Below are positions 29,675-41,540 of a DNA stretch of 42,506 nucleotides, piece after piece (within the stretch, counting starts at the first letter, position 1; each line of letters starts with the position of its first letter). Under the pieces are notes generated by a model that was not told where the DNA came from, ran no database searches, and saw nothing but the letters and a program-made list of their open reading frames with translations. A program made the position numbers and the translations under genes. The stretch is from contig JABFSF010000111.1 in assembly GCA_013140755.1 (NCBI GenBank), positions 1-42,506 of the forward strand, given 5' to 3'. This DNA comes from Methylotenera sp. (GTDB lineage: Bacteria; Pseudomonadota; Gammaproteobacteria; Burkholderiales; Methylophilaceae).

Positions 29675-31216
29675 TTAATGGCAACCAGATGGCAATGTAG
29701 ATTGTGAATAGGTTAAGGTAACAGTGACATTTAATGATTCTGAATCAGGACCTTCATACACAAATTGATTAGGTGTAATAAAAAAAATGTGTTTTAGTTT
29801 AGACTCTAATGAGTTTACAGCAACCTTGCCACTGTTTGAGCAATCTAAAATTTGGTTTCCATTTTTCATTACTTCAAACTCAACAATTTTTGTGTTGTTA
29901 TCTGTTAGATGGTAATAATAGTCATAATCTGGATCAGATGGAGACTCACGCCAAACTTTTTTGGAAAACAAACCAATTGCTTCATTAAGCGTCATTGGCT
30001 TTCCGATTGTAATCTGTTTAGTGGCAGCAAGGCCTTCGTCATCAATAACTGTTTGGGTTAGGGTGAGAACCTGTCCAGGAAATCGTTGAAATTGGATGTA
30101 ATCAGAACTGCCAGTTTGGACGATATTGTCACCTAACTTCACTTCCCAAAGGATATGCCCACTATCATTGCGTACATTTCCATCTGGATCATCACGACCC
30201 AAATGGTTGCGACAGCTATAGCACAAGTGATAAGTTGTAAATCCATTAACAGAAATGGGAATTGCGACTTCGGTAGACCAGCCTGTATAAGGGGGCAAAT
30301 TAGGTATAGATGGATTTCGCAGGTAAATCTGTTGCAAATAGTCGCTATGGATATAATCCACGCCGTTATACAAAACAAGGTTAATAATGCGACTGCTTGC
30401 TGGAGAACTTAATTCTCGCATAAATTCATAATGCAAATCAACGCCATTGATATTTACATTTCCTTTTGCAGAAGTGAAATTAAAGTGATGGTTACTATCG
30501 TCGATTAAAGTTAAATCCAATTGCGCAGAAAAGGTTGTATTTTTAGCAAGTACCACTACCCCTTTTTGAATGCTAAAAGGGGTGCTAAAAGTTACAGAAG
30601 CATTTTTAACTACAGCTGGAGTTAGTGCTGCTGGGCGGACTTTGCCAAGTCGGTCTATTACGTCATAACTTATGTAAGTAGATGCTTGGTATCTTGCGAT
30701 TGTTTTTGCTAAAGCGGCCTCAATGTTGCTCAACAGTTTTATATCAGCTGTGGTTACCGTAGTTTGCAGAGATGCATTAGGCCTTAATGATGTTAGAGCT
30801 GCACTGACTGACTCAGTGTTAGTAAAATCAGCTTGTGCAGAAAGTGTTTTAGCAAGCTTAGGTAGCTGAATGCCAGCTATTGTGCTAGAAGTATCTAATG
30901 CCTTCAGCATGTGAAGTTGGTTAAAAGCAATCGTTTTATCATCTAAATAAAGTGGTGTGATAATAGGTGCAGCAGGGATAGATGCAAAAACTATTCCTGC
31001 GTGGCTCAAGGTTACGTTTTCACCATAGATATATTTGAATTTACCTAGAGAAGAAGTATAGCCTTTAAGGCTAGGGGTCTCAAAATGCATATTTGCGACT
31101 AATGGATAGACCGTTCCTTCTAGAACTTTTGGTTTAACGGCAGAATTTGCGATTAATGGGCTAAATAAACTAAATGTTAGAAAAGAAAGAGTAATAACAA
31201 AACCTAAACTGCGCAT
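29675..31216 (-). CDS. Large secreted protein of unknown function, candidate secretion substrate
   Basis: A 513-residue exported protein: signal peptide to about residue 25, then a segment (SSLGKFKYIYGENVTLSH and ITPLYL, then a QLHMLKALDT stretch) resembling an N-terminal module seen in other proteobacterial surface proteins with GxFxYxxGxxVxFxIG patterns. The rest is beta-rich with repeated threonine/serine strands. It has CYSCRNHLG near residue 355 (possible metal or disulphide site), and two further cysteines near the C-terminus including the final GCH. No enzyme family is recognised. It is on the same strand 98 bases after the last pseudopilin gene, making it a plausible substrate or surface component of that system, by position only. 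Confidence 0.75.
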   Translation of the reverse strand: MRSLGFVITLSFLTFSLFSPLIANSAVKPKVLEGTVYPLVANMHFETPSLKGYTSSLGKFKYIYGENVTLSHAGIVFASIPAAPIITPLYLDDKTIAFNQLHMLKALDTSSTIAGIQLPKLAKTLSAQADFTNTESVSAALTSLRPNASLQTTVTTADIKLLSNIEAALAKTIARYQASTYISYDVIDRLGKVRPAALTPAVVKNASVTFSTPFSIQKGVVVLAKNTTFSAQLDLTLIDDSNHHFNFTSAKGNVNINGVDLHYEFMRELSSPASSRIINLVLYNGVDYIHSDYLQQIYLRNPSIPNLPPYTGWSTEVAIPISVNGFTTYHLCYSCRNHLGRDDPDGNVRNDSGHILWEVKLGDNIVQTGSSDYIQFQRFPGQVLTLTQTVIDDEGLAATKQITIGKPMTLNEAIGLFSKKVWRESPSDPDYDYYYHLTDNNTKIVEFEVMKNGNQILDCSNSGKVAVNSLESKLKHIFFITPNQFVYEGPDSESLNVTVTLTYSQSTLPSGCH

Positions 31217-31314
31217 AGAAAACCTATTCTTAATTGTATGGACTTCTCGCTACCACAGTATCATAAATAAACTGCTTTTGCTGGCTTATTTTGGGTAAAT
31301 ATCTCTTTAAAAGC

Positions 31315-31905
31315 TTACTCCTCCACTGTCACTTCGTTACTTCCAGACATATCAGCATTGTCACTCTCATCTGTGTTTACCATTGTAGGCTGATAAATGA
31401 ACTTCCAATCGGCGTAGGTTTTTAAGGATTCTTCTCCAGCGGTTTGTTGCAGATTTTCATCAACATTCGTTTTAATGGGGATGTCATTTGAGAGGCTGTA
31501 AACGCCGATAATCTGGTCTTGTTCATTTTTAACTAAACCCCACTCTGCGCTGTTACGCATGGGGTCTAAATAAATTTTTCGTAGGTGATGTGCAGGCTTG
31601 AGGTGGCGATTGTCGCTCATCAGCATCTCTAAGCTTTGCGGATATTGCTTATTGCCTTGTGGAGATTTTTCATAGTAGCTAGCAATGGCGTTGCGAAATT
31701 GTTTACCTACAAATAATAGTTGCACTTCACGCTCACGTTGCGCAGTTTGGGCAATGTCTTGTGAAGCAGCAGTGAGGGTAATTGCCATCACCGCAAGCAC
31801 TAATAGCAGAGTAATGTAGGCAAAGCCTTTATCGGCATGACTGTTGTTACCATTCACCATAGAGCGTGCCATTGTTTGCGGTGTTTGGCGAGCCGCTTCG
31901 TACAT
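31315..31905 (-). CDS. Minor pseudopilin-like protein lacking Glu+5
   Basis: A 196-residue protein with a pilin-like N-terminus, cut site KG|FAYITLLLVLAVMAITL. The residue at +5 is threonine, not glutamate, as is typical of the tip pseudopilin GspK, although GspK is usually much longer. A conserved YPQSLEMLMSDNRH segment, DPM and GVYSLS follow, related to the other two pseudopilins. It overlaps the end of the preceding pseudopilin gene by about 59 bases if this start is right; later ATGs at 31872 or 31857 are possible. Last gene of the secretion cluster proper. Confidence 0.75.
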   Translation of the reverse strand: MYEAARQTPQTMARSMVNGNNSHADKGFAYITLLLVLAVMAITLTAASQDIAQTAQREREVQLLFVGKQFRNAIASYYEKSPQGNKQYPQSLEMLMSDNRHLKPAHHLRKIYLDPMRNSAEWGLVKNEQDQIIGVYSLSNDIPIKTNVDENLQQTAGEESLKTYADWKFIYQPTMVNTDESDNADMSGSNEVTVEE

Positions 31906-32263
31906 CGTAAACGCCAGCAGAATGGTCTGGCGGGTCTATTGTGACCCAATCAGCTTGCTCTGTAATTGGGTCTATGGGAATTTCTCGCAGATATTTGTGT
32001 TCTGCCAGCACACTTAACGATGGTGGGTAAGCCCCTTTGTCAGCATGATAATGACCAATCGCATCGCGCATAGTAGCAAGATCCTCTCGCAATACTGCTT
32101 CTTTGGCGCGTTGCAAGCCAGCAAAGTAGCGTGGTACCGCAATGCTGAGTAGTAAAGCGGCAATGGCCATTACAATCATGAGCTCAATAAAGGTGAAGCC
32201 TAGCGAGGGTTGCTTTTTGTTACGCATATTTTCGTATTTACCATTGGTTGTATGGAATATCAT
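31847..32263 (-). CDS. Type II secretion pseudopilin (GspG/H-like)
   Basis: A 138-residue prepilin-like protein, with cut site SLG|FTFIELMIVMAIAALLLSIAVPRY including Glu+5. The C-terminal domain has DKGAYPPSLSVLAEHKYLREIPIDPIT, a GspG-like layout. ATG 32263 is used here (AAAGG 5 bases before it); the ATG at 32227 would give a shorter leader. It overlaps the genes on both sides, as expected for a tight operon. Confidence 0.82.
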   Translation of the reverse strand: MIFHTTNGKYENMRNKKQPSLGFTFIELMIVMAIAALLLSIAVPRYFAGLQRAKEAVLREDLATMRDAIGHYHADKGAYPPSLSVLAEHKYLREIPIDPITEQADWVTIDPPDHSAGVYDVRSGSPNTANNGTLYGEW

Positions 32264-32711
32264 TTAAGCCTTTCTGCGGGCTTAGTGAATAAACGTCAAA
32301 AACATCTACGCCAGCAGTGGGGCGGTCTGGTGGGCTGTCATAGCTACGTGTTCCCCATGTTTGGGCATTCGTTAAGCGGCTATCGTTAGACATAGGGTCG
32401 CGCGGTAAGCGGCGCAGAAAGTAGATTTTCTTTTTTTTCAGGTCTTTTGCATCTTCAATGCCTTCAGCAAGCACTTCTAAACTTTTTGGGTAGCCTGAGT
32501 CTTCAACCTGCTTGATGATTCTGCCTTCATCACTCGCCGTTTTAAAGGCATCAATTGCCTCACGAATTTCGCGTAAATTGCGGCGCAAATCCGTTTCTTT
32601 TTGGCGTGTAGTTATCAGCTCTACATAAGGTACAGCAACGCTTGCTAGCAAGGCTAGTATAGCTACAGTGATAATGATTTCAATATAAGAAAAGCCGCGC
32701 ATCAATTGCAT
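32238..32711 (-). CDS. Type II secretion pseudopilin
   Basis: A 157-residue prepilin-like protein, leader MQLMRG cut before FSYIEIIITVAILALLASVAVPYVE, with Glu+5. The C-terminal part has YPKSLEVLAEGI and the LPRDPMSND segment shared with the two following pseudopilins, so the three are paralogues. Starts 5 bases after the secretin stop. Confidence 0.85.
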   Translation of the reverse strand: MQLMRGFSYIEIIITVAILALLASVAVPYVELITTRQKETDLRRNLREIREAIDAFKTASDEGRIIKQVEDSGYPKSLEVLAEGIEDAKDLKKKKIYFLRRLPRDPMSNDSRLTNAQTWGTRSYDSPPDRPTAGVDVFDVYSLSPQKGLNDIPYNQW

Positions 32712-32716
32712 AAGTG

Positions 32717-34621
32717 TTATCGTATATTACGAATACGCTCAATGGCCGAAGAAAGCTCAGGCGACAATGGTACGTTTAAACCTTGCGGTTTTTCAGCAGG
32801 CGCGGCGGCTGGTGCGGCAGGCGTAGCTGGAGCACCAAGTGGGCGGCCAACGGTAAACATTTTAGCTAACCCTTCTTGTGTGGTGGGGGCTTTAAAAGAC
32901 CGCCCAGCTTGTGCTTCGCTACCTATCCAGTATTCTGCTAGTTCAGCAGAAGGCGTATTTTTTTCGCGAATAATATGTGGTGTAATAGATAAAACAATTT
33001 CAGTTTTTGTTTTTTCATCCCCATGGTTAGAAAATAAACGCCCAAGTAGTGGTAAGTCACCTAACCCTGGGAGTTTGCTCACATTTTTGCGATCTTCATC
33101 GCTAATCAACCCTGCTAGCACTTGTGTTTCACCATCTTTAAGGCGTAGCTGCGTGTTTGTGCTACGCGTGCCAATTTGATACACCACCGAGCCGCTATTG
33201 GTTTTAGTTGCAGTGCCAATAGAGCTCACATCTAAATTCACTTTGATGTTGACATCGCCACCCAAGCTAATGTTTGGCTCAACTTCTAGTTTTAGCCCTG
33301 CATCTATGTATTGCACATTTTCTGAAATGACCCCTGTTGAAGAAACGTTTGAGGTAATAATCGGCACACGGTCACCAATATGAATGCGTGCTTTATCTTT
33401 GTTTTTAACGCGAATACGTGGGTTAGCCAGTAAATTAACATCTGAATCTTTACCATTAAATACCACAGAAGGATTAGGGCTCACACCTATTTTATCGCGA
33501 TTGATATTTTCTAAGCTTCTTAAAGTTAATCCAGCCGCAGGCGAAATCAGCGTGAGTTGATTAGGCCATGTTGCGCCAATATCTAAATTACGGGTGCGTT
33601 TAACTTCTAACACCTCAAGCTCTAGCATCACCTCAGGGTCAGGAATATCCTGAGAAGCAATAAGTTTCTCTGCCAAGCCCATGATGTCTTCAGTATCCTT
33701 AATCATAATCATCGGCAAGCGATCGTCCGTTTGCACTTGTTTAATACCTAGCATAGACGTTAGCAAACTACCGATAAGTTTAGGCTCAGCATATTCTAAA
33801 AAGAAACTACGAATCACTAAATCTTGATACTCCCGTATTTTGGTGGGATTATTGGGGTATAGCACCACAGAGTTTTCATTTAAAATTTTCATCCGCAATT
33901 GATTAGTTTGTGCGAGTAATTCAATCGCATTTTCTAGCATCACATTATTAACAAATAGTGTAGCTTTTTGCGTGCTGCTAATTTCTTGGTCAAGAATAAA
34001 ATTAACGCCCGTTCCTTTAGAAAGCGATTCAATAATGACTTTAAGTCCCACATCGCGAAACTGCAAAGAAACTGGGTTTTTGTAACTCAAGCGTTTACGT
34101 AACATTTCTGCACGCTTTGCATCTTGCTTAGTAATCAGGTCTTTATATAAAGCACGCGCTTCTGTGTGGTTAGGGTTTTCAACCAAAATGCTACGTAACT
34201 TAGCGGCGGCGATTTTATCTTGGTCGTCAGATTTTCCTAGCAACGATTTAGCTTCGTCTAACAAAGTAAGGTGGATGCGGCGCGCTGAAACATCACGCAA
34301 CCCTTCGGCAGCACGCAAATGATTAGCATCTAATGTTTTTAATGCTTGAAAGCTTTGCTCAGCCAAGTCTAAATCACCACGGTTTAACGCATCATCAGCC
34401 GTTTTAAGTAACTTAATCACCTCAGCATTATATTGCTTAATAGCGTTAATTTTGTCTGGTGCTTGCTCACTGCTTTGCGTGGGCTCATCTTTAGTGCGTA
34501 TTTTTTTAGTGAGTGCGCTCATGGAGAACACATTGATGGTGTCGCAACCTGTTGCACTGAGTAGCAATGCAAGCATCAGCGCACTTAAGCGTGTGCAACG
34601 GTAGGTTTGTTGATAGTTCAT
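32717..34621 (-). CDS. gspD: Secretin (GspD-like) with TPR-like N-terminus, outer-membrane lipoprotein
   Basis: Outer-membrane channel of the secretion/pilus hybrid, 634 residues from ATG 34621 (AGGA upstream); an ATG at 34633 is less likely. Lipobox ATGC near residue 26 makes it a lipoprotein. Residues about 55-145 form TPR-like helices (LDLAEQSFQALKTLDANHLRAAEGL), unusual for T2SS secretins. Then an STN/secretin-N region and the secretin core, with VLAGLISDEDRKN, LPGLGDLPLLGRLF and TEIVLSITPHII motifs near the C-terminus. A proline/alanine-rich tail follows. Confidence 0.93.
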   Translation of the reverse strand: MNYQQTYRCTRLSALMLALLLSATGCDTINVFSMSALTKKIRTKDEPTQSSEQAPDKINAIKQYNAEVIKLLKTADDALNRGDLDLAEQSFQALKTLDANHLRAAEGLRDVSARRIHLTLLDEAKSLLGKSDDQDKIAAAKLRSILVENPNHTEARALYKDLITKQDAKRAEMLRKRLSYKNPVSLQFRDVGLKVIIESLSKGTGVNFILDQEISSTQKATLFVNNVMLENAIELLAQTNQLRMKILNENSVVLYPNNPTKIREYQDLVIRSFFLEYAEPKLIGSLLTSMLGIKQVQTDDRLPMIMIKDTEDIMGLAEKLIASQDIPDPEVMLELEVLEVKRTRNLDIGATWPNQLTLISPAAGLTLRSLENINRDKIGVSPNPSVVFNGKDSDVNLLANPRIRVKNKDKARIHIGDRVPIITSNVSSTGVISENVQYIDAGLKLEVEPNISLGGDVNIKVNLDVSSIGTATKTNSGSVVYQIGTRSTNTQLRLKDGETQVLAGLISDEDRKNVSKLPGLGDLPLLGRLFSNHGDEKTKTEIVLSITPHIIREKNTPSAELAEYWIGSEAQAGRSFKAPTTQEGLAKMFTVGRPLGAPATPAAPAAAPAEKPQGLNVPLSPELSSAIERIRNIR

Positions 34622-34657
34622 AATGGGGTTCATCCTATTAGTGCTTTGCTTGGTTGA

Positions 34658-35200
34658 TTATTCCACTGGTATTTCTTCATCAGTTGGTGTGCTAGGCTGT
34701 ACGATATGAGGTGCCGCACGTATGGTCTGTGGCGTATTTAATGGCAAATATAAGATACTGACACCCTCGTTCTCAATAGATACCACTTTATATTGTGCAT
34801 CCAAAACCTCACCTTGTTTGACGGTCAGTAAAGTTTCACCTTGTTGTATAAAACCTTTAGTTTGTCCATTTTCAACCATTTTACCCACAAAATTATAAGG
34901 TACAGGTGGTGCAGTAGGCACAATAATCACGGGCTTAGCAACGATAACTTTTTCTGCGCTGGCAATCACAGGTATTCCAAATAAATTGGCTGGAGTAGCA
35001 GTGCTACTTAAGCGTGCATTTAATTTAAAAGCAATTTGATTACTCACAGAAGTGGCTAGCGTGTGCTCACGCTTGACTTGCACGGCATTTACCACAAGTG
35101 CTTCATCTTGCTCTGCAGGAGGAGCTTTCCAAACCAACACTAGGGTGATGGCAAGCATAATCCCTAAAAATAACCAGCGTTTTAATGGCGTATTATTCAT
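34658..35200 (-). CDS. GspC/PilP-like inner-membrane protein of the secretion cluster
   Basis: A 180-residue protein: a single membrane helix near residues 9-25 (WLFLGIMLAITLVLVWKAP), a flexible region, then a compact beta domain (VPYNFVGKMVENGQTKGFIQQG and EVLDAQYKVVSIENEGVSIL), as in GspC homology-region or PilP domains that link the inner membrane to the secretin. Its ATG overlaps the stop of the preceding gene (ATGA). Weak sequence signal; assigned by topology and position just before the secretin. Confidence 0.75.
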   Translation of the reverse strand: MNNTPLKRWLFLGIMLAITLVLVWKAPPAEQDEALVVNAVQVKREHTLATSVSNQIAFKLNARLSSTATPANLFGIPVIASAEKVIVAKPVIIVPTAPPVPYNFVGKMVENGQTKGFIQQGETLLTVKQGEVLDAQYKVVSIENEGVSILYLPLNTPQTIRAAPHIVQPSTPTDEEIPVE

Positions 35201-35721
35201 TGCGCCACCAAATGTAATGTAAGCCTAACATCTACCATTACCGTTTCTGCTTGCGCATTTTCACGATTAAAAATAAGTTGGTCTAACGACACATAAGGCA
35301 AGGTGGCGAGTGTTTCTAGCAAAAAACTTTTAGCCGAGGCATACGGTGCTTCAAATAAAAAATCAATATGGTATTGCTCTACGCTTTCACCTTGTTTGCG
35401 CTCACGTTTGTAGCTCACCTCACCTAAGTTAAGGTGTTTTTTTTCTGCTTGGTCAAAAATCGTTTGCAGTTGCGCGGTCATCATTGCATCAGAGGATGGC
35501 AGTGAAGCTAAAAAAGCCTGAGCGGGTGAAGTCACCACCACCGTGACTTTAGGCACGCTTACAACACTGGTTTGCTGAGAAATTTCCGCCAATTTTTGTT
35601 GTGTAGGCACGAGCACCCATTGCCAATAAACGAGCGAACTTAGAGCTAACAGCACTGCTACAATACCGATAACCCCTAATTTATCAGTGAGGCGAAATAA
35701 TAACCATTGCACTTGTTTCAT
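35197..35721 (-). CDS. pilO: PilO/GspM-like assembly protein
   Basis: A 174-residue bitopic protein: cytoplasmic N-terminus, membrane helix near residues 15-32 (GIVAVLLALSSLVYWQWVL), coiled-coil neck, then a ferredoxin-like periplasmic domain ending in VSLDQLIFNRENA and a VDVRLTLHLVAQ strand. ATG 35721 is preferred to a GTG at 35733. PilO-type proteins pair with PilN-type partners in the inner-membrane platform. The assignment is by position and topology; GspM would be the T2SS equivalent. Confidence 0.75.
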   Translation of the reverse strand: MKQVQWLLFRLTDKLGVIGIVAVLLALSSLVYWQWVLVPTQQKLAEISQQTSVVSVPKVTVVVTSPAQAFLASLPSSDAMMTAQLQTIFDQAEKKHLNLGEVSYKRERKQGESVEQYHIDFLFEAPYASAKSFLLETLATLPYVSLDQLIFNRENAQAETVMVDVRLTLHLVAQ

Positions 35722-36242
35722 TAAAATTTCCACTCCGCATGTAAGGTAAATGCCAGCGTTTTTTGTGTTTCACCTTCTATCACACTTTGGTTCATGAGGG
35801 TCGCTTCTTGCAAGGAGTGTTGTTGTTTGAGTGTTTCTACATACGCCATCATTGCGGCAACATTATTGGCTTCTCCACTCAAGATGATGTCATTCTTTAT
35901 GGGGTTAGGTTGCACTGAAGTGAGTTTGATTTGTGGATGTTGCGTTTGCACTTGCTCTAACGTAGTGAGCAGTGCGTGCCAAGGGATATTCAATTGGCGT
36001 AAGGTGTTGGTTGCCATCGTTTGTGCTTTAATTTCATCCTCTGAAAAAGCGGGCTGCTTTGAAACTGCCAGATTAACATTGGGCTGGCTGGCTGCTAAGT
36101 CGTCAATTTTTTTTGTGATGTCATGATGTTTAAATAACAAGCTTACTAATATCAGCATCAAGCCAGCCACAATAAGCGCGGTAATTTTGCGCATATTGGC
36201 TTGTTTGTGCGATGAAAAATTTAGATTAAGTGATTTCATCAT
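35721..36242 (-). CDS. pilN: PilN/GspL-periplasmic-like assembly protein
   Basis: A 173-residue bitopic protein: short basic N-terminus, membrane helix near residues 18-36 (ITALIVAGLMLILVSLLF), then a periplasmic part with a PilN-like NDIILSGEANNVAAMMAYVETLKQ segment and final LAFTLHAEWKF strand. It overlaps the PilM stop by 4 bases (ATGA). Together with the separate PilM-like gene it replaces the single GspL protein of classic type II systems. Confidence 0.78.
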   Translation of the reverse strand: MMKSLNLNFSSHKQANMRKITALIVAGLMLILVSLLFKHHDITKKIDDLAASQPNVNLAVSKQPAFSEDEIKAQTMATNTLRQLNIPWHALLTTLEQVQTQHPQIKLTSVQPNPIKNDIILSGEANNVAAMMAYVETLKQQHSLQEATLMNQSVIEGETQKTLAFTLHAEWKF

Positions 36243-37018
36243 CCATTGCGTGATTCATTGATTAAAATAGAAGCACCATGGCGGTAAGTATTTTTAGCCA
36301 GCGACAGCACATTTAAACCTTGCAGTGGTTGGTGTGCAATCAATTCATCTGACCCAAAATAAGCTAAACGCCCAGTGGGATGACTTTTTAAATGCATGGC
36401 ACGGGCGAGCATATTGACGCACTCTTGCGCAGCTTGCCCCGCTGGCGGCGTTGCCACAGCAAAGTTTTGCCATTCCCCCGCTTCAAACATTGCTAATAAA
36501 AGATGATGTGGCTCAGCGATGAGCAAGCAATCGCAAGTGGTTATTTCAGCCTGATAACGGTTAAAAACAGTCATTAACGCAGGTTCAATACCGTGAATAT
36601 GCAAGTTAAATTGTGTCGCAATGCTTGCTAATTGCATGGTGAGTGCATGATCCATCGCGCAGGCTAGCGCAGGTTTGCCATATCCTTGCAGTGCTACTTG
36701 CACTTGCCAATCATCACACACCGCACCAAAAGCTTGCCTAAAGTGATGCTCACCTAAACCTTGCCAATCTTGTTGCGAGAAAACACCCTCTTGCCAAGGC
36801 AACACCGCTTGCCGCACAAAATAATGCGAAATCACAAAACGCACATGCTTGAGTGACAATTCAGGAAGCAATTCCACCAAGTTTTGTAACAATGCATCCC
36901 AACGTTGCGGTGTGGTATGGTGAGTGAGCATTTGCGCAGTGGCACTATTGGCATGACACAAAGCCAAACCTTCAGGCGCAATTAAAATGCTACTAGGCTT
37001 AGACCACGGAAGTAACAC
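36239..37018 (-). CDS. pilM: PilM-like cytoplasmic platform protein
   Basis: A 259-residue protein of actin/FtsA-like type by position and weak sequence features. It starts with GTG at 37018, supported by an almost ideal AGGAGGTGA ribosome binding site 4-5 bases before it. Segments such as HVRFVISHYFVRQAVLPW and LHIHGIEPALMTVFNRYQ are PilM-like; the typical nucleotide-binding motifs are poor, and the length is shorter than PilM (about 350). It overlaps gspE by 20 bases. Confidence 0.72.
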   Translation of the reverse strand: MLLPWSKPSSILIAPEGLALCHANSATAQMLTHHTTPQRWDALLQNLVELLPELSLKHVRFVISHYFVRQAVLPWQEGVFSQQDWQGLGEHHFRQAFGAVCDDWQVQVALQGYGKPALACAMDHALTMQLASIATQFNLHIHGIEPALMTVFNRYQAEITTCDCLLIAEPHHLLLAMFEAGEWQNFAVATPPAGQAAQECVNMLARAMHLKSHPTGRLAYFGSDELIAHQPLQGLNVLSLAKNTYRHGASILINESRNG

Positions 37019-38675
37019 GATTCACCTCCTGCACTGTGGTTTCGCCACGCCATGCTAAATCTAATGCCGCCTCACGTAGCGAATGTGTGCCATGCTGATG
37101 CGCGTATTCTTTAATTTGGCGAATTGATGCCCGCGCAGTAATCATTTCGCGCAATTCATCATCCAAACAAAGCATTTCAGCCACGGCGCGTCTGCCTTTG
37201 TAGCCTGTACCACGGCAAACCCCGCAACCTTTGCCTAACACTGGCTGCGCAGTAGGTGGTGGGGTAACCCCTGCCAAGGCAATCAGCTGATGATCAATCG
37301 GCACAGGTTCGGCGCATTGGGTGCAAACAGTGCGAATTAAACGTTGCGCCACAATGATATTAAGCGCAGAAACAAAGCTGTAAGGATCAACCCCCATGTT
37401 TAAAAAACGTCCAATCACATCAAACACATTATTCGCGTGTACTGTGGTAAACACCAAATGCCCCGTGAGCGCAGATTGCACCGCGATTTGCGCGGTTTCA
37501 TTATCCCGAATTTCACCCACCATGATTTTATCTGGGTCATGACGCAAAATCGAGCGCAAGCCCCGTGCGAAAGTGAGTCCTTTTTTCTCATTTACGGGAA
37601 TTTGCAACACGCCTGCTAATTGATATTCTACGGGGTCTTCAATGGTAATAATTTTATCTAAACCATGATTGATTTCACTAATTGCCGCATACAGTGTGGT
37701 GGTTTTTCCGCTCCCTGTAGGGCCTGTTACCAGCACCATACCATAAGGGTTAAGAAAATGGCGGCGCATGACTTGCATGACTTCTTCATCAAAACCTAAG
37801 TAATCTAAGCGTAGCCCTTTGACGTGGTCAGCCAAAGATTGCTTATCTAACACGCGAATGACGACATCTTCACCATGAATGCTCGGCATGACAGAAACGC
37901 GAAAATCCACATCGCGCCCACGATACACCGCCCTAAAACGCCCATCTTGCGGCACGCGTTGCTCAGTAATATCTAACTCTGCCATCACTTTAATACGTGA
38001 AATCACTTGGTCAGCCATTGCAATTTCACTCACCGCGCCTACTTGGCTCATCACGCCATCTAAGCGATATTTAATGGCTAAGCCGTTAGGAAGGGTTTCT
38101 AAATGAATATCACTGGCATCGGCTTTTAGCGCATCATAAAGCGTTGAGCGCACCAATTTAACAACAGGGCTGGCATCGCCCTCAATAGAGTGAAGCGAAA
38201 GCTCTTCAATTTGGCTTGCATCATCGCCGCGTTGCCCTGTTAAACCAATGGCAGAATCTACGGCACGCATGGTTTCTTCTTGCCTTGCGAGGTAGGCGGC
38301 AATGTCAGTGCGGTGCGCTAATCGCGTATGAAAAGCCTGTGCAAGTTTAACCATTGCCCATGCGCCTATTTGCGCATCAAAAACATCAGCAAATACAAAT
38401 AGCAAACCTTGTGTTGGGTGCTGTAATGCCACGCACTCACGTTGTAGTGCTTCAGAAAAATGAATGCCCGCAAAAAATGCCTCGCATTGCAACATTTCAT
38501 CTAAGCTAATGGGTTGATATGCATAAGCCTGTGCAAGGTTTAAGGTCAACTCGGTTGCAGATAAACCGCTGTGTTCTTCAATATACGTGATGGGGCGTTG
38601 CCCTTGTGTAAGCGCATCCGCACGTAGCTGGGCAATTTTTTGTAAAAACGTTTGAATGTGTGCTGTCGTATTCAT
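36999..38675 (-). CDS. gspE: Type II secretion/pilus assembly ATPase (GspE/PulE)
   Basis: Hexameric cytoplasmic ATPase powering pseudopilus assembly, 558 residues. N-terminal MshEN-like region; then Walker A GPTGSGKTT (residues 318-326), aspartate box, Walker B MVGEIRDNETAQ and a His box LTGHLVFTTVHANN. A C-terminal zinc-type motif CTQC...CGVC follows, as in GspE and PilB. It follows gspF by 8 bases in the same operon. Confidence 0.96.
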   Translation of the reverse strand: MNTTAHIQTFLQKIAQLRADALTQGQRPITYIEEHSGLSATELTLNLAQAYAYQPISLDEMLQCEAFFAGIHFSEALQRECVALQHPTQGLLFVFADVFDAQIGAWAMVKLAQAFHTRLAHRTDIAAYLARQEETMRAVDSAIGLTGQRGDDASQIEELSLHSIEGDASPVVKLVRSTLYDALKADASDIHLETLPNGLAIKYRLDGVMSQVGAVSEIAMADQVISRIKVMAELDITEQRVPQDGRFRAVYRGRDVDFRVSVMPSIHGEDVVIRVLDKQSLADHVKGLRLDYLGFDEEVMQVMRRHFLNPYGMVLVTGPTGSGKTTTLYAAISEINHGLDKIITIEDPVEYQLAGVLQIPVNEKKGLTFARGLRSILRHDPDKIMVGEIRDNETAQIAVQSALTGHLVFTTVHANNVFDVIGRFLNMGVDPYSFVSALNIIVAQRLIRTVCTQCAEPVPIDHQLIALAGVTPPPTAQPVLGKGCGVCRGTGYKGRRAVAEMLCLDDELREMITARASIRQIKEYAHQHGTHSLREAALDLAWRGETTVQEVNRVTSVV

Positions 38676-38683
38676 GTCGGTTT

Positions 38684-39871
38684 TTATTGAATTCCGCTTG
38701 CTAGCTCAAAAATTGGCAAATACATCAATAATACAATAATGCCTATCACCAAACCAATGCCTATCATCAGCACAGGCTCAACCAACTTAGTAAAAGCATC
38801 CACCCATCTTAACATTTCTTCTTCATGGTAGCTGGCAGCGTGTTCCATCATGGCATCTAGCTGACCTGATTTTTCACCCGCGCGAAATAATTGCAAAGCC
38901 ACAGGCGTAGTCAATCCAAATTGCAACATGGCTTCAGAAAAAGACACTCCCTCACTAATACGCTTTTGTGCCATTTGAATCGGGTGTTGCAGCGTTTGAC
39001 CAAGCAAATCATTTACCATACTCAGCGCGCTCACCAAAGGAATACCACTACGCAATAACATCGCAAAAGTGCGATACAAACGGCTAAGATGATACACGCG
39101 CAAACGATTACCCAAATGTGGCAAGTGCAACACCCATGCGCCAATTTTTGCGCGTACACTGGGCTGCGCTAACAAACCAATCACGCCCACCACAGTCACC
39201 ACCAATACTCCCAATATCAATGCGCCATGATGCTCAACCAATTGCCCAAGCTTTAATAAAGTTTCAGACGCAAGCGATAAATTATTCGTACGCGATTCAT
39301 AAATTTTGCTAAACCTAGGTACCACATAACCCAATAAAAACACCAACACTAAAGCCCCGAAAAACAACACCAGCGTAGGATAAATAGAAGCACTGATTAA
39401 ACGTTTGCGTAAAATATCCACCTGCTCTAAATAAAGCGAATAACGCGCTAAGCCTTCGGGTAAATTACCTGTGGTTTCACACGCTTTTACGCTAGCTACA
39501 AATAAATGCGGAAAATGCGCAGGCATGGTAGCAAGGGCATCAGAGAGCATTTTTCCTTCATTCACCAAACCTCCTAAGCGTAGTAGCACATCGCGTGTTT
39601 CGGCTTTGTTTTCTTTGTGCGCCAAGGTAGCAAGCACCTCAGGTAAAGGCAAACCTGCTTGTAATAAAATACGCAACTCTTGGCAAAACAATAACAGTGG
39701 AAACTGTGCCGCACGCGGCTGAAGGCTCAAGCGAGCGAGCGGCTCAACACGCAATACCGTAAACCCCTGTTGCTCGGCCAACTGGCGTGCGTGCGCAAGG
39801 GTACCCGCCTCAATCTGCATGGAGATTGGCGCACTGGCTTGGAGTTTTAAAACGCGCAGTTGAAATTGCAT
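38684..39871 (-). CDS. gspF: Type II secretion inner-membrane platform protein (GspF)
   Basis: Inner-membrane platform protein that couples the ATPase to pseudopilin extraction. It has 395 residues with the two tandem GspF domains: first near residues 55-180 (FCQELRILLQAGLPLPEVLATLA), second near 265-385 (LLRSGIPLVSALSMVNDLL). Hydrophobic segments lie near 160-185, 215-235 and 365-385 (VLMIGIGLVIGIIVLLMYLPIF). Located 29 bases after gspG. Identification is secure. Confidence 0.96.
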   Translation of the reverse strand: MQFQLRVLKLQASAPISMQIEAGTLAHARQLAEQQGFTVLRVEPLARLSLQPRAAQFPLLLFCQELRILLQAGLPLPEVLATLAHKENKAETRDVLLRLGGLVNEGKMLSDALATMPAHFPHLFVASVKACETTGNLPEGLARYSLYLEQVDILRKRLISASIYPTLVLFFGALVLVFLLGYVVPRFSKIYESRTNNLSLASETLLKLGQLVEHHGALILGVLVVTVVGVIGLLAQPSVRAKIGAWVLHLPHLGNRLRVYHLSRLYRTFAMLLRSGIPLVSALSMVNDLLGQTLQHPIQMAQKRISEGVSFSEAMLQFGLTTPVALQLFRAGEKSGQLDAMMEHAASYHEEEMLRWVDAFTKLVEPVLMIGIGLVIGIIVLLMYLPIFELASGIQ

Positions 39872-39900
39872 GTGAAATTAAAATAAATAAGCGTGAACGG

Positions 39901-40332
39901 CTAATGATTACTTAAATCGGCATCATCCTCTTTGCCACCCACTTTGCCATCTTTACCCAATGAAATTAAATCGTAATCGCCTGCCTCTCCTGGCATACGG
40001 TATTGATAAGGCGTGTTCCAAGGGTCAGGCGGAATCGCTTTTTCAAGATACGGCCCTTGCCATTTAGCCTCGCCACTGGGTGCGACTAACAAAGCCTGCA
40101 AGCCAACTTCTTGAGATGGATAATGCCCCGTATCTAATCGGTACATGTCTAAAGCTTTGCTAATGGCGGAAATTTGCGCTTTAGCGGCTTTAACCTCTGA
40201 TTTACCTAATTGGGAAAAATAACGCGGCGCGACAATACTCACCAACAAACCAATAATGACCACTACGACCAACAGCTCTAGCAACGTAAAGCCAGATGAA
40301 TAAGGACGATTTAAACAGCGGCGAGGTTGCAT
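39901..40332 (-). CDS. gspG: Major pseudopilin GspG
   Basis: Main subunit of the pseudopilus, 143 residues from ATG 40332 (GGAG seven bases upstream; an upstream frame extension is not needed). Leader cut at SSG|FTLLELLVVVVIIGLLVSIVAPRY with Glu+5. Globular domain shows DTGHYPSQEVGLQAL, a WQGPYL...PPDPWNTPYQY block and the C-terminal calcium-loop segment SLGKDGKVGGKEDDADLSN. First gene of the secretion operon. Confidence 0.96.
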   Translation of the reverse strand: MQPRRCLNRPYSSGFTLLELLVVVVIIGLLVSIVAPRYFSQLGKSEVKAAKAQISAISKALDMYRLDTGHYPSQEVGLQALLVAPSGEAKWQGPYLEKAIPPDPWNTPYQYRMPGEAGDYDLISLGKDGKVGGKEDDADLSNH

Positions 40333-40373
40333 CGCAAAACTCCAAAACAAATAAATAGTGCCTATTATGGCAG

Positions 40374-40400
40374 AAAAAACCCCCGCCTAGGCGAGGGTTA
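40374..40400 (-). terminator. Terminator between the GlcG-like gene and gspG
   Basis: A GC-rich stem of 10 base pairs with one mismatch and a T run on the minus strand, just past the stop of the GlcG-like gene. It separates that gene from the secretion operon. Confidence 0.75.
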
Positions 40401-40435
40401 AGTGACAACTCAAACTAGGTGAGACAAAGTTTAAA

Positions 40436-41278
40436 TTATGCTCCTGGTGGAGCTGGTAATGGACGAATACCGAAGTCAGCTGCATTTGCTGGCAGTGGGA
40501 AAGTCGTTCCTGGATCATAAGGTGTTGGATCCGTCTCGGGATTACATGCTGGTTGCTCACCCAAAGCTGTTGGAAGTGCTGGACCTGGAATCAATTTTAA
40601 ACCATCATCATTCGGTTGAAAGTTTTTTGCTAAAGCAATACGCATACGGTAAGCTACGGCGTGGTCACGGCATGAAGTGTCACCAGAAGCACCAATCGCA
40701 CCAATTTTAATTGCGCCTGATTTGTAAAGCGCAACACCGCCACCGAATACATTCACACCACCTGGGCGTTGGCCTTTAAGCGGGTCTGCATTGGTGCCAA
40801 TAATGTTGGTAAATGCCAAGCCTGATGTGCCAGCACCATAAGCGGCTGCAGGGTTTACAGGGTTGCTATGTTGCAAGCCAAATAAGCTACCACCTTCATA
40901 GGTTAAAGCAGTAATAAAGCCAGTTGAAAGTGCCAACCCATTGATGCTAAATGCATTAGCGGTATTTGCTTTTTGTGCAGAAATCACACGGCTACCCAAC
41001 CATGCGCTGGTGCTTACTTTTTTACCTGGACCTACGATAGGCACTGTGCTTGAACCATCTGTTGCATACACGTGGCATACAGCACCTACTTCATCCACCA
41101 TGGTAAGCCACATGGGCAAACCAAAACCAAAATCACCTGTTTCAACCACTGCGGTTCTCGCAGCAGTTTCAAACGCAGTACGTGTTACATCAGTACAAGC
41201 AGCTGATGCTGAAGTTGATGCTACAACAGACATTGCTGCCACTGCTGCCATCATACTTAATTTAAATGTGTTACGCAT
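40436..41278 (-). CDS. Secreted GlcG/HbpS-family (DUF336) protein
   Basis: A 280-residue exported protein. ATG 41278 has an AAGGGG ribosome binding site; the 10 residues upstream in frame are not signal-peptide-like. Signal peptide to about residue 26 (SASA|A). The body shows the DUF336 pattern: LGSRVISAQKANTANAFS, FGGGVALYKSGAIKIGAIGASGD and DHAVAYRMR. HbpS-type members bind haem and some are secreted; haem binding here is inferred only. C-terminal tail is proline-rich. Two cysteine pairs may form disulphides in the periplasm. It lies directly upstream of gspG and may be exported by that system. Confidence 0.85.
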   Translation of the reverse strand: MRNTFKLSMMAAVAAMSVVASTSASAACTDVTRTAFETAARTAVVETGDFGFGLPMWLTMVDEVGAVCHVYATDGSSTVPIVGPGKKVSTSAWLGSRVISAQKANTANAFSINGLALSTGFITALTYEGGSLFGLQHSNPVNPAAAYGAGTSGLAFTNIIGTNADPLKGQRPGGVNVFGGGVALYKSGAIKIGAIGASGDTSCRDHAVAYRMRIALAKNFQPNDDGLKLIPGPALPTALGEQPACNPETDPTPYDPGTTFPLPANAADFGIRPLPAPPGA

Positions 41279-41476
41279 AATAACCCCTTGAATATCAATA
41301 AAAGACAAAGAAACTTACTGAAATAATTCCAGTAAGACGCCAATAACTCTAGCATAAAATTATGAAAAAATCACTATTCTCTATTTGTGTTAAATCAAAT
41401 AATTTAAATTATGATGGTGATGATGTTTAGACGGTTGTAACCATGCAAAAATTGTACGTTGAGGATGGCGAACAAA

Positions 41477-41540
41477 GAAAAAATGGCGTATGCAAAAAAG
41501 CCCCACGCGTGTGAGGCTTTTTTGCATACGCCATTTTTTC
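41477..41540. terminator. Long bidirectional hairpin between the GlcG-like gene and tRNA-Leu
   Basis: Arms of 30 bases (41477-41506 and 41511-41540) with a single mismatch and a 4-base GCGT loop. The inner part (AAAAAAGCC...GGCTTTTTT) is a normal terminator in both directions; the outer 14 bases extend the stem well beyond that. It lies 36 bases past the tRNA 3' end. Confidence 0.85.

What the first reader, a model, noticed from the sequence alone, without database searches (positions are those of the whole stretch)
29675..40332. Compact type II secretion/type IV pilus hybrid operon
The operon combines GspG, GspF, GspE and a secretin with separate PilM-, PilN- and PilO-like platform proteins instead of GspL/GspM. 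The secretin is a lipoprotein with an N-terminal TPR-like region, and three short related minor pseudopilins replace GspHIJK. No prepilin peptidase gene is in the cluster. The layout fits neither classic T2SS nor T4P, MSHA or Tad, and its substrates are unknown.
Basis: partly seen in the sequence, partly recalled or inferred. Interest (0 to 1): 0.7.

Follow-up and report, generated by a model that had tools for sequence, protein, structure and literature searches.

The report
Overlooked sibling of type II secretion
A methylotrophic bacterium carries a compact machine, built like a type IV pilus base with a secretion-type pilin, that probably pushes an exported heme-binding-type protein out of the cell; the same eleven-gene machine is widespread in betaproteobacteria, sits next to different exported proteins, and seems to have been noted only in passing.

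Summary
An 11-gene operon (31315-40332, minus strand) encodes GspG, F, E, PilM-, PilN-, PilO- and PilP-like platform proteins, a lipoprotein secretin with a TPR-like region, and three minor pseudopilins.
It is no one-off: 71 of 105 distinct related loci carry the full set, 70 in the same order; 34 are incomplete, 21 of them near a contig end. Genomes hold up to four copies. In trees of E, F and D, 18 chosen members form one supported clade apart from labelled canonical T2SS, MSHA and T4aP.
Best reading: a protein-secretion machine working like a T2SS. An exported HbpS-like protein lies just upstream, with a terminator-like hairpin between (8 of 8 genomes). In the genus it occurs in 9 of 12 genomes with this machine or a canonical T2SS and 0 of 25 with neither (Fisher 1.8e-6); in one species it sits inside a canonical T2SS cluster instead.
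Prior notice: a small gsp cluster of Cupriavidus metallidurans, whose locus falls in this family, and probably Ralstonia's 'unorthodox' T2SS (sequence not tested). Secretion is inferred, not shown.

The parts
40436..41278 (-). HbpS-like exported protein, 280 aa from the ATG at 41278; candidate cargo
   Evidence: PF03928 E 6.2e-8 (reference 40436-41290, four codons longer than the likely gene); translation with Sec-type signal sequence read by eye; directly upstream of G here and in seven other genomes; co-occurrence
40378..40399 (-). terminator-like hairpin with T run between HbpS and gspG
   Evidence: a hairpin followed by a T run at the same place in 8 of 8 HbpS-first genomes by minimum-energy fold, no shuffled control
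39901..40332 (-). GspG-type major pseudopilin
   Evidence: TIGR01710 178.6 bits, over cut-off; Glu+5 in 75 of 75 readable of 78 family members
38684..39871 (-). GspF/PilC-like inner-membrane platform protein
   Evidence: PF00482; GspF model 270 bits, below cut-off 424; own clade 96/88
36999..38675 (-). GspE/PilB-like assembly ATPase
   Evidence: GspE model 480 (cut-off 630), PilB model 464 (cut-off 676); own clade 100/100
36239..37018 (-). PilM / cytoplasmic-GspL-like actin-fold protein
   Evidence: AlphaFold model pLDDT 87.3, Foldseek PilM E 3.7e-12, GspL 2.1e-9
35721..36242 (-). PilN-like bitopic protein
   Evidence: PF05137 20.9 bits, below cut-off 22.8; position; fused to M in 12 of 90 loci
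35197..35733 (-). PilO/GspM-like bitopic protein
   Evidence: profile vs PDB: PilO E 2.4e-8
34658..35200 (-).
   Evidence: profile vs PDB: PilP E 0.0022; model pLDDT 80.0, pTM 0.46; Foldseek PilP 2.4e-3, GspC-HR 4.9e-3, none at or below 1e-3
32717..34633 (-). secretin: lipoprotein signal, TPR-like region, N0 (STN), one Secretin_N domain, secretin barrel
   Evidence: Secretin over cut-off, STN and Secretin_N just below theirs; lipobox and TPR-like region; groups with own genome's PilQ 97/90
32238..32711 (-). minor pseudopilin 1 (Glu+5)
   Evidence: TIGR02532 over cut-off; Glu+5 in 97 of 97 readable of 98
31847..32263 (-). minor pseudopilin 2 (Glu+5)
   Evidence: PF07963 over cut-off; Glu+5 in 92 of 92 readable of 99
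31315..31860 (-). minor pseudopilin 3, lacks Glu+5; GspK-like in that respect (GspK trait recalled)
   Evidence: sequence GFAYITLLL; no relevant Pfam hit; Glu+5 absent in 89 of 90 readable of 92

Best explanation
The operon encodes a secretin-dependent protein-secretion machine that works like a type II secretion system but forms its own lineage in the type IV filament superfamily. Proposed steps: (1) the cargo, most likely the HbpS-like protein encoded just upstream, crosses the inner membrane by Sec and folds in the periplasm (inferred from its signal sequence). (2) A prepilin peptidase encoded elsewhere matures GspG and the minor pseudopilins (inferred). (3) E drives F to build a short GspG pseudopilus on a PilM-N-O-type platform; the third pseudopilin, which lacks Glu+5, is likely at the tip (inferred by analogy with GspK). 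(4) The PilP-like protein couples the platform to the secretin N0 domain (inferred from fold). (5) The secretin carries a lipid anchor and a TPR-like region at its own N-terminus, so it probably reaches the outer membrane without a separate pilotin: a pilotin fused to its secretin (inferred; TPR lipoprotein pilotins are recalled). Copies in other genomes may be dedicated to other cargo encoded beside them.
For: GspG passes the T2SS equivalog cut-off at twice the threshold. HbpS-like genes among 37 same-genus genomes: 9 of 12 with this family or a canonical T2SS, 0 of 25 with neither; Fisher 1.8e-6; among the 24 genomes at least 90% complete and at most 5% contaminated, 8 of 11 versus 0 of 13, p 2.2e-4. 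In 7 of the 9 the gene lies within 3 kb of this operon; in G032, which has no family secretin, it lies between T2SS genes: GspI, J, K, L over curated cut-offs, M and N over Pfam cut-offs, a weak GspC, then HbpS, then GspD on the other strand; G001 has a canonical T2SS on another contig. HbpS is followed by a terminator-like hairpin before gspG in 8 of 8 genomes, as expected if cargo is made in excess of machine. Other copies sit beside exported-type proteins: GH18 chitinase (L057) and a multicopper oxidase (L044), PhoX in 3 of 121 nearest neighbours, M4 metallopeptidase (annotation), Rhs/SpvB-type proteins (annotation in 59, 60). Lytic transglycosylase in 9 of 121. Secretin lipobox in 96 of 105 by pattern, 7 of the other 9 by eye.
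Against: No secretion, localisation or expression data. Three same-genus genomes with the family lack HbpS (G014, G016, G019), so HbpS is not cargo of every copy. Genomes are related, so the Fisher value overstates independence. Crude signal-sequence calls show no steady fall with distance: upstream neighbours 26 of 57, 14 of 50, 16 of 42; downstream 22 of 64, 19 of 56, 13 of 53. The commonest family among the 121 nearest neighbours is a LuxR-type regulator (11), not an exported enzyme. Rhs neighbours may reflect genomic islands; no enrichment was computed. Platform and secretin look T4aP-like, so a surface pilus is not excluded. The TPR-like and PilN assignments are weak.
Confidence: 0.72

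Rival explanations
1. A type IV pilus: the machine builds a surface filament for adhesion or DNA uptake, and neighbouring exported proteins are adhesins or passengers.
For: PilM/O/P-type platform; secretin groups with PilQ 97/90, one PilQ row only, and shows one Secretin_N domain.
Against: Major subunit is GspG by curated model; no second ATPase in the operon; the genome already has a T4aP ATPase over cut-off and an MSHA-type secretin over cut-off; HbpS swaps with a canonical T2SS.
Confidence: 0.13
2. A bona fide type II secretion system that has merely diverged: sister or derived branch of canonical T2SS with GspL split into PilM and PilN. It would work as in the best explanation.
For: GspG; E scores slightly higher with the GspE than the PilB model (480 vs 464); M-N fused into one GspL-like protein in 12 of 90 loci. 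Trees are unrooted, so a sister position is possible.
Against: E, F and D each fall outside the canonical clade, and D joins PilQ; one Secretin_N domain found (three in GspD is recalled); three minor pseudopilins.
Confidence: 0.35
3. HbpS and the machine are linked only because both ride on the same accessory region, with no functional tie.
For: Patchy presence in the genus; copies on plasmids; a copy in a contig titled Methylophaga (L059) suggests transfer.
Against: HbpS occurs in two different positions relative to this operon and also inside a canonical T2SS cluster in another species; it was found in none of the 25 same-genus genomes without a machine.
Confidence: 0.15
4. A DNA-uptake pseudopilus.
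For: Pseudopilins and a secretin are shared with competence machines (general knowledge).
Against: Not tested here beyond the cargo association, which fits secretion better.
Confidence: 0.03

Closest known systems
Small gsp cluster on CHR2 of Cupriavidus metallidurans CH34 (Rmet_4704-4713; PMC2864759, passages seen)
   Same: Described there as gspD, gspEFG, two further gspG copies and four hypothetical genes; the CH34 megaplasmid locus I found (L138) carries the full G-F-E-M-N-O-P-D-pp1-3 order and falls in the clade
   Different: The passages seen give no function or cargo. Locus tags were not matched: the held record has no features there.
'Unorthodox' T2SS of Ralstonia solanacearum (PMC5080846, PMC6428702, passages seen)
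   Same: Seven core genes, in one copy four hypothetical genes between gspE and gspD, rhsB beside one copy; PMC2864759 says of the CH34 cluster that it is flanked by IS elements in GMI1000, implying a counterpart there
   Different: Sequence not compared: record not held.
Geobacteraceae Pul 'atypical' T2SS, required for secretion of the multicopper protein OmpB (PMC3543383, passages seen; the primary paper is not held)
   Same: A T2SS with three named pseudopilins (PulG, OxpG, TklG) and a multicopper cargo; L044 here lies beside a multicopper oxidase gene
   Different: Homology not tested; no Geobacter genome within reach.
Canonical T2SS
   Same: GspG, E, F, secretin, a PilP/GspC-HR-like domain, a pseudopilin without Glu+5, and cargo of the same HbpS family in G032
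   Different: GspL split in the window, PilO-like protein in place of GspM, PilQ-like lipoprotein secretin with TPR-like region, three minor pseudopilins, separate clade
MSHA pilus
   Same: single locus without prepilin peptidase (PMC6668835, passages seen)
   Different: secretin 90.8 bits with the MshL model, cut-off 250.2; separate in trees

Membership tests
Canonical T2SS | GspG major pseudopilin | tested here: met
   TIGR01710 178.6 vs 88.85
Canonical T2SS | E, F, D inside the T2SS clade | tested here: not met
   family clade supported 100/100, 96/88, 100/99; references from the window's class plus E. coli only
Canonical T2SS | E, F, D over the GspE, GspF, GspD curated cut-offs | tested here: not met
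   480/630, 270/424, 155/351 bits
Canonical T2SS | one-piece GspL plus GspM | tested here: not met
   M and N separate in window; fused in 12 of 90 loci; O matches PilO
Canonical T2SS | GspC with HR domain | tested here: inconclusive
   P resembles both PilP and GspC-HR, E 0.002 to 0.005
Canonical T2SS | four minor pseudopilins H, I, J, K | tested here: not met
   three genes; third lacks Glu+5 in 89 of 90
Canonical T2SS | releases folded proteins | not testable with these tools
   only cargo co-occurrence
T4aP | PilMNOP platform | tested here: inconclusive
   M and O supported; P weak, shared with GspC; N weak
T4aP | ATPase in the PilB clade | tested here: not met
T4aP | PilQ-type secretin | tested here: inconclusive
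   groups with one long-branched PilQ row 97/90; PilQ model 151 vs cut-off 284
T4aP | PilT-type ATPase with the system | tested here: not met
   no second ATPase frame seen in 29675-41308
MSHA | MshL secretin and MSHA clade | tested here: not met
   90.8 vs 250.2 bits
Tad | TadA-type ATPase | tested here: not met
   54 vs 373 bits
C. metallidurans CH34 small gsp cluster | same gene order and clade | tested here: met
   L138; identity with Rmet_4704-4713 by replicon and gene make-up, tags not matched
Ralstonia unorthodox T2SS | same gene order and clade | not tested
   record not held; textual match only
Geobacteraceae Pul | same clade | not testable with these tools

The most novel reading that the evidence does not exclude
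A separate lineage of dedicated protein-secretion machines, assembled independently from type IVa-pilus-like parts plus a GspG pseudopilin and a secretin with its pilotin fused on, in which each copy (up to four per genome) exports the protein encoded beside it, and which can replace a canonical T2SS for the same cargo family.
Probability: 0.4. Interest if true: 0.75.

Novelty: new variant of a known kind. Interest (0 to 1): 0.6.

Why it matters
It gives a gene set, a taxonomic range and candidate cargo to a machine that the annotated records I read show mostly as stray 'type II secretion system protein' and hypothetical genes. The swap of one cargo family between two machine types is a natural experiment on what such systems recognise. 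Multi-copy genomes (four copies in G025) allow testing whether each copy serves its neighbour. The secretin with a lipoprotein, TPR-like front end bears on how secretins reach the outer membrane.

Tried and rejected
Considered and set aside: the 513-aa exported protein at 29675-31216 as a component: no homologue in the loci then held, and other genes at that place in L058 and L059. MSHA or Tad identity: rejected by models and trees. A single sister group: E leans to 7 of 11 MSHA rows (94/78, not starred), D to PilQ (97/90, one long-branched row), F to none, so none is claimed; MSHA itself splits in the E tree. My GspG calcium-site pattern matched 38 of 78 and is not used. Signal-sequence calls on neighbours gave no steady distance trend. 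Rhs: 10 clustered proteins from 8 of 80 loci, five of these loci confirmed by Pfam; RHS repeats occur in 14 of 61 relatives; no enrichment value was computed. N gave no relevant PDB match. M had no relevant PDB sequence match, only a fold match. Literature: ten searches; no listed title or start of abstract, nor the passages I read, defines this family or its cargo, but subscription papers are mostly not held.

Five of 110 loci were duplicates and were dropped before counts. Incomplete loci are called 'near a contig end' if a family gene lies within 1500 bases of an end of the fetched stretch. Trees used 18 family members, 11 T2SS, 11 MSHA (9 in F) and 13 T4aP rows (12 in F, 1 in D); a G set was prepared but no G tree was run. 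Family presence was taken as 230 bits or more; a split match in G040 (175 and 157 bits) was read as a copy (L057) but G040 is outside the genus table. In some searches few candidates per genome were scored (4 and 7 at most in the rows shown), so absences there are soft.
Full report
Setting. The window is contig C89 of a 2.6 Mb genome. A relative counted as the same genus (G025) holds a contig that matches one titled Methylotenera sp. (L028 and L060), so this is a Methylophilaceae methylotroph.

The genes. Eleven genes run on the minus strand with overlaps or gaps of at most about 30 bases: G, F, E, M, N, O, P, D, pp1, pp2, pp3. G is GspG by the curated equivalog model (178.6 bits, cut-off 88.85). 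E, F and D match T2SS and T4P models and stay below the curated cut-offs of all of them. M has no credible family hit but folds like PilM and the cytoplasmic domain of GspL. O matches PilO by profile. N is supported by position, a sub-threshold PilN hit and fusion to M in 12 of 90 loci. D has a lipoprotein cysteine, a TPR-like region (weak hits), an N0 domain, one Secretin_N domain and the secretin barrel.

The family. Secretin D was searched in 61 relatives and the regions of 30 hits were read. After dropping five duplicates, 71 of 105 loci carry the full set (M and N separate or fused) and 70 keep the order; one (L129) has G-F-E at the other end; 34 are incomplete, 21 of them near an end of the fetched stretch. 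Some genomes hold several copies: four in G025, three each in G003, G013 and G028. At strict thresholds the matches lie in the window's GTDB order: 5 of 298 other genomes of the phylum by D and 2 of 199 by E, all in that order (few candidates scored per genome). More distant members exist, such as a plasmid system in Aliiroseovarius with its own prepilin peptidase, at the base of the family clade. One copy lies in a contig titled Methylophaga (L059).

Phylogeny. References were canonical T2SS (10 loci with ATPase over the GspE cut-off, plus E. coli K-12), T4aP (12 over the PilB cut-off plus the own genome's) and MSHA (11 loci; nine with secretin over the MshL cut-off, two below). Eighteen family members form one clade in E (100/100), F (96/88) and D (100/99). 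The neighbour differs between trees, so mosaic origin or lack of resolution both remain. The trees are unrooted and hold no other phyla, so a sister relation to T2SS is not excluded.

Conserved details. Glu+5 is present in all readable G (75 of 78 readable), pp1 (97 of 98) and pp2 (92 of 99), and absent in 89 of 90 readable pp3 of 92. Lack of Glu+5 is, from recall, a trait of GspK. The lipobox pattern is found in 96 of 105 secretins; of the other nine, seven show one by eye, one is cut by a contig end and one is unclear.

Cargo. In the window and seven other genomes an exported HbpS-like protein (PF03928; 6 of the 121 nearest neighbours of the named loci) lies directly upstream of gspG, and in all eight a terminator-like hairpin separates the two (no shuffled control). 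In a second subtype it lies past the other end: second gene in L045, L077 and L135, fourth in L033. Among the 37 same-genus genomes, HbpS occurs in nine: seven within 3 kb of this operon; G032, without a family secretin, between GspI-J-K-L-M-N-(C) and GspD genes; and G001, on another contig than its canonical T2SS. G001 and G032 are the only two of the 37 with a GspE over cut-off. The association is 9 of 12 against 0 of 25 (p 1.8e-6), or 8 of 11 against 0 of 13 in the better genomes (p 2.2e-4). Relatedness of the genomes weakens the p values, and three genomes with the family lack HbpS. A quick tree of 14 HbpS proteins puts the canonical-T2SS pair beside the second subtype (SH-aLRT 99). I read this as one cargo family served by two kinds of machine.

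Other copies have other neighbours: a GH18 chitinase, a multicopper oxidase followed by two more large exported-type genes not scanned, and RHS proteins, PhoX in 3 of 121, an M4 metallopeptidase (as annotated), Rhs/SpvB-type proteins (59, 60 as annotated), and often a lytic transglycosylase (9 of 121) or a LuxR-type regulator (11 of 121). These are associations only; signal-sequence calls on neighbours showed no steady fall with distance.

Mechanism. Shown: gene content, conservation, clade, cargo co-occurrence. Inferred: Sec export of cargo, maturation by a peptidase encoded elsewhere (two in the genome), pseudopilus-driven release, self-piloting of the secretin.

What was known. PMC2864759 (passages) describes the CH34 cluster; PMC5080846 and PMC6428702 (passages) describe two unorthodox T2SS in Ralstonia, one next to rhsB. 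PMC3543383 (passages) describes the Geobacteraceae Pul system with three pseudopilins and the multicopper cargo OmpB, the best functional precedent; homology is untested. PMC6668835 (passages) is a main classification of these machines; the passages seen name no such lineage. That cargo and family are undefined in print rests on the ten searches listed under Tried and rejected.

Verdict. It is a new variant of a known kind, with a concrete test of its cargo.

Noticed in passing
window 29675-31216: 513-aa exported-type protein without a Pfam hit, same strand after pp3, no homologue in the loci held.
   Followed up: partly
window 41485-41532: Inverted repeat of 20 counted pairs followed by a T run, upstream of the HbpS-like gene.
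   Followed up: no
L059: A copy with HbpS first in a contig titled Methylophaga, a gammaproteobacterium; suggests transfer between methylotrophs or a binning error.
   Followed up: partly
L220:7644-7895 and L221:10883-11137: Small lipoprotein-like gene directly after HbpS in the two canonical-T2SS species.
   Followed up: no
L222:7174-12386 (own genome, C147): Two tandem large exported-type genes in the stretch with RHS repeats, no secretion operon in the fetched piece.
   Followed up: no
L015 (own genome, C10): MSHA-like locus with MshL over its cut-off; its ATPase branches apart from 7 of the 11 MSHA rows.
   Followed up: partly
L139: Related alphaproteobacterial plasmid system with its own A24 prepilin peptidase, near polysaccharide genes.
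   Followed up: no
L044:12826-20000: LuxR-type response regulator, then three large exported-type proteins in a row beside one copy; the first is a multicopper oxidase by Pfam.
   Followed up: partly
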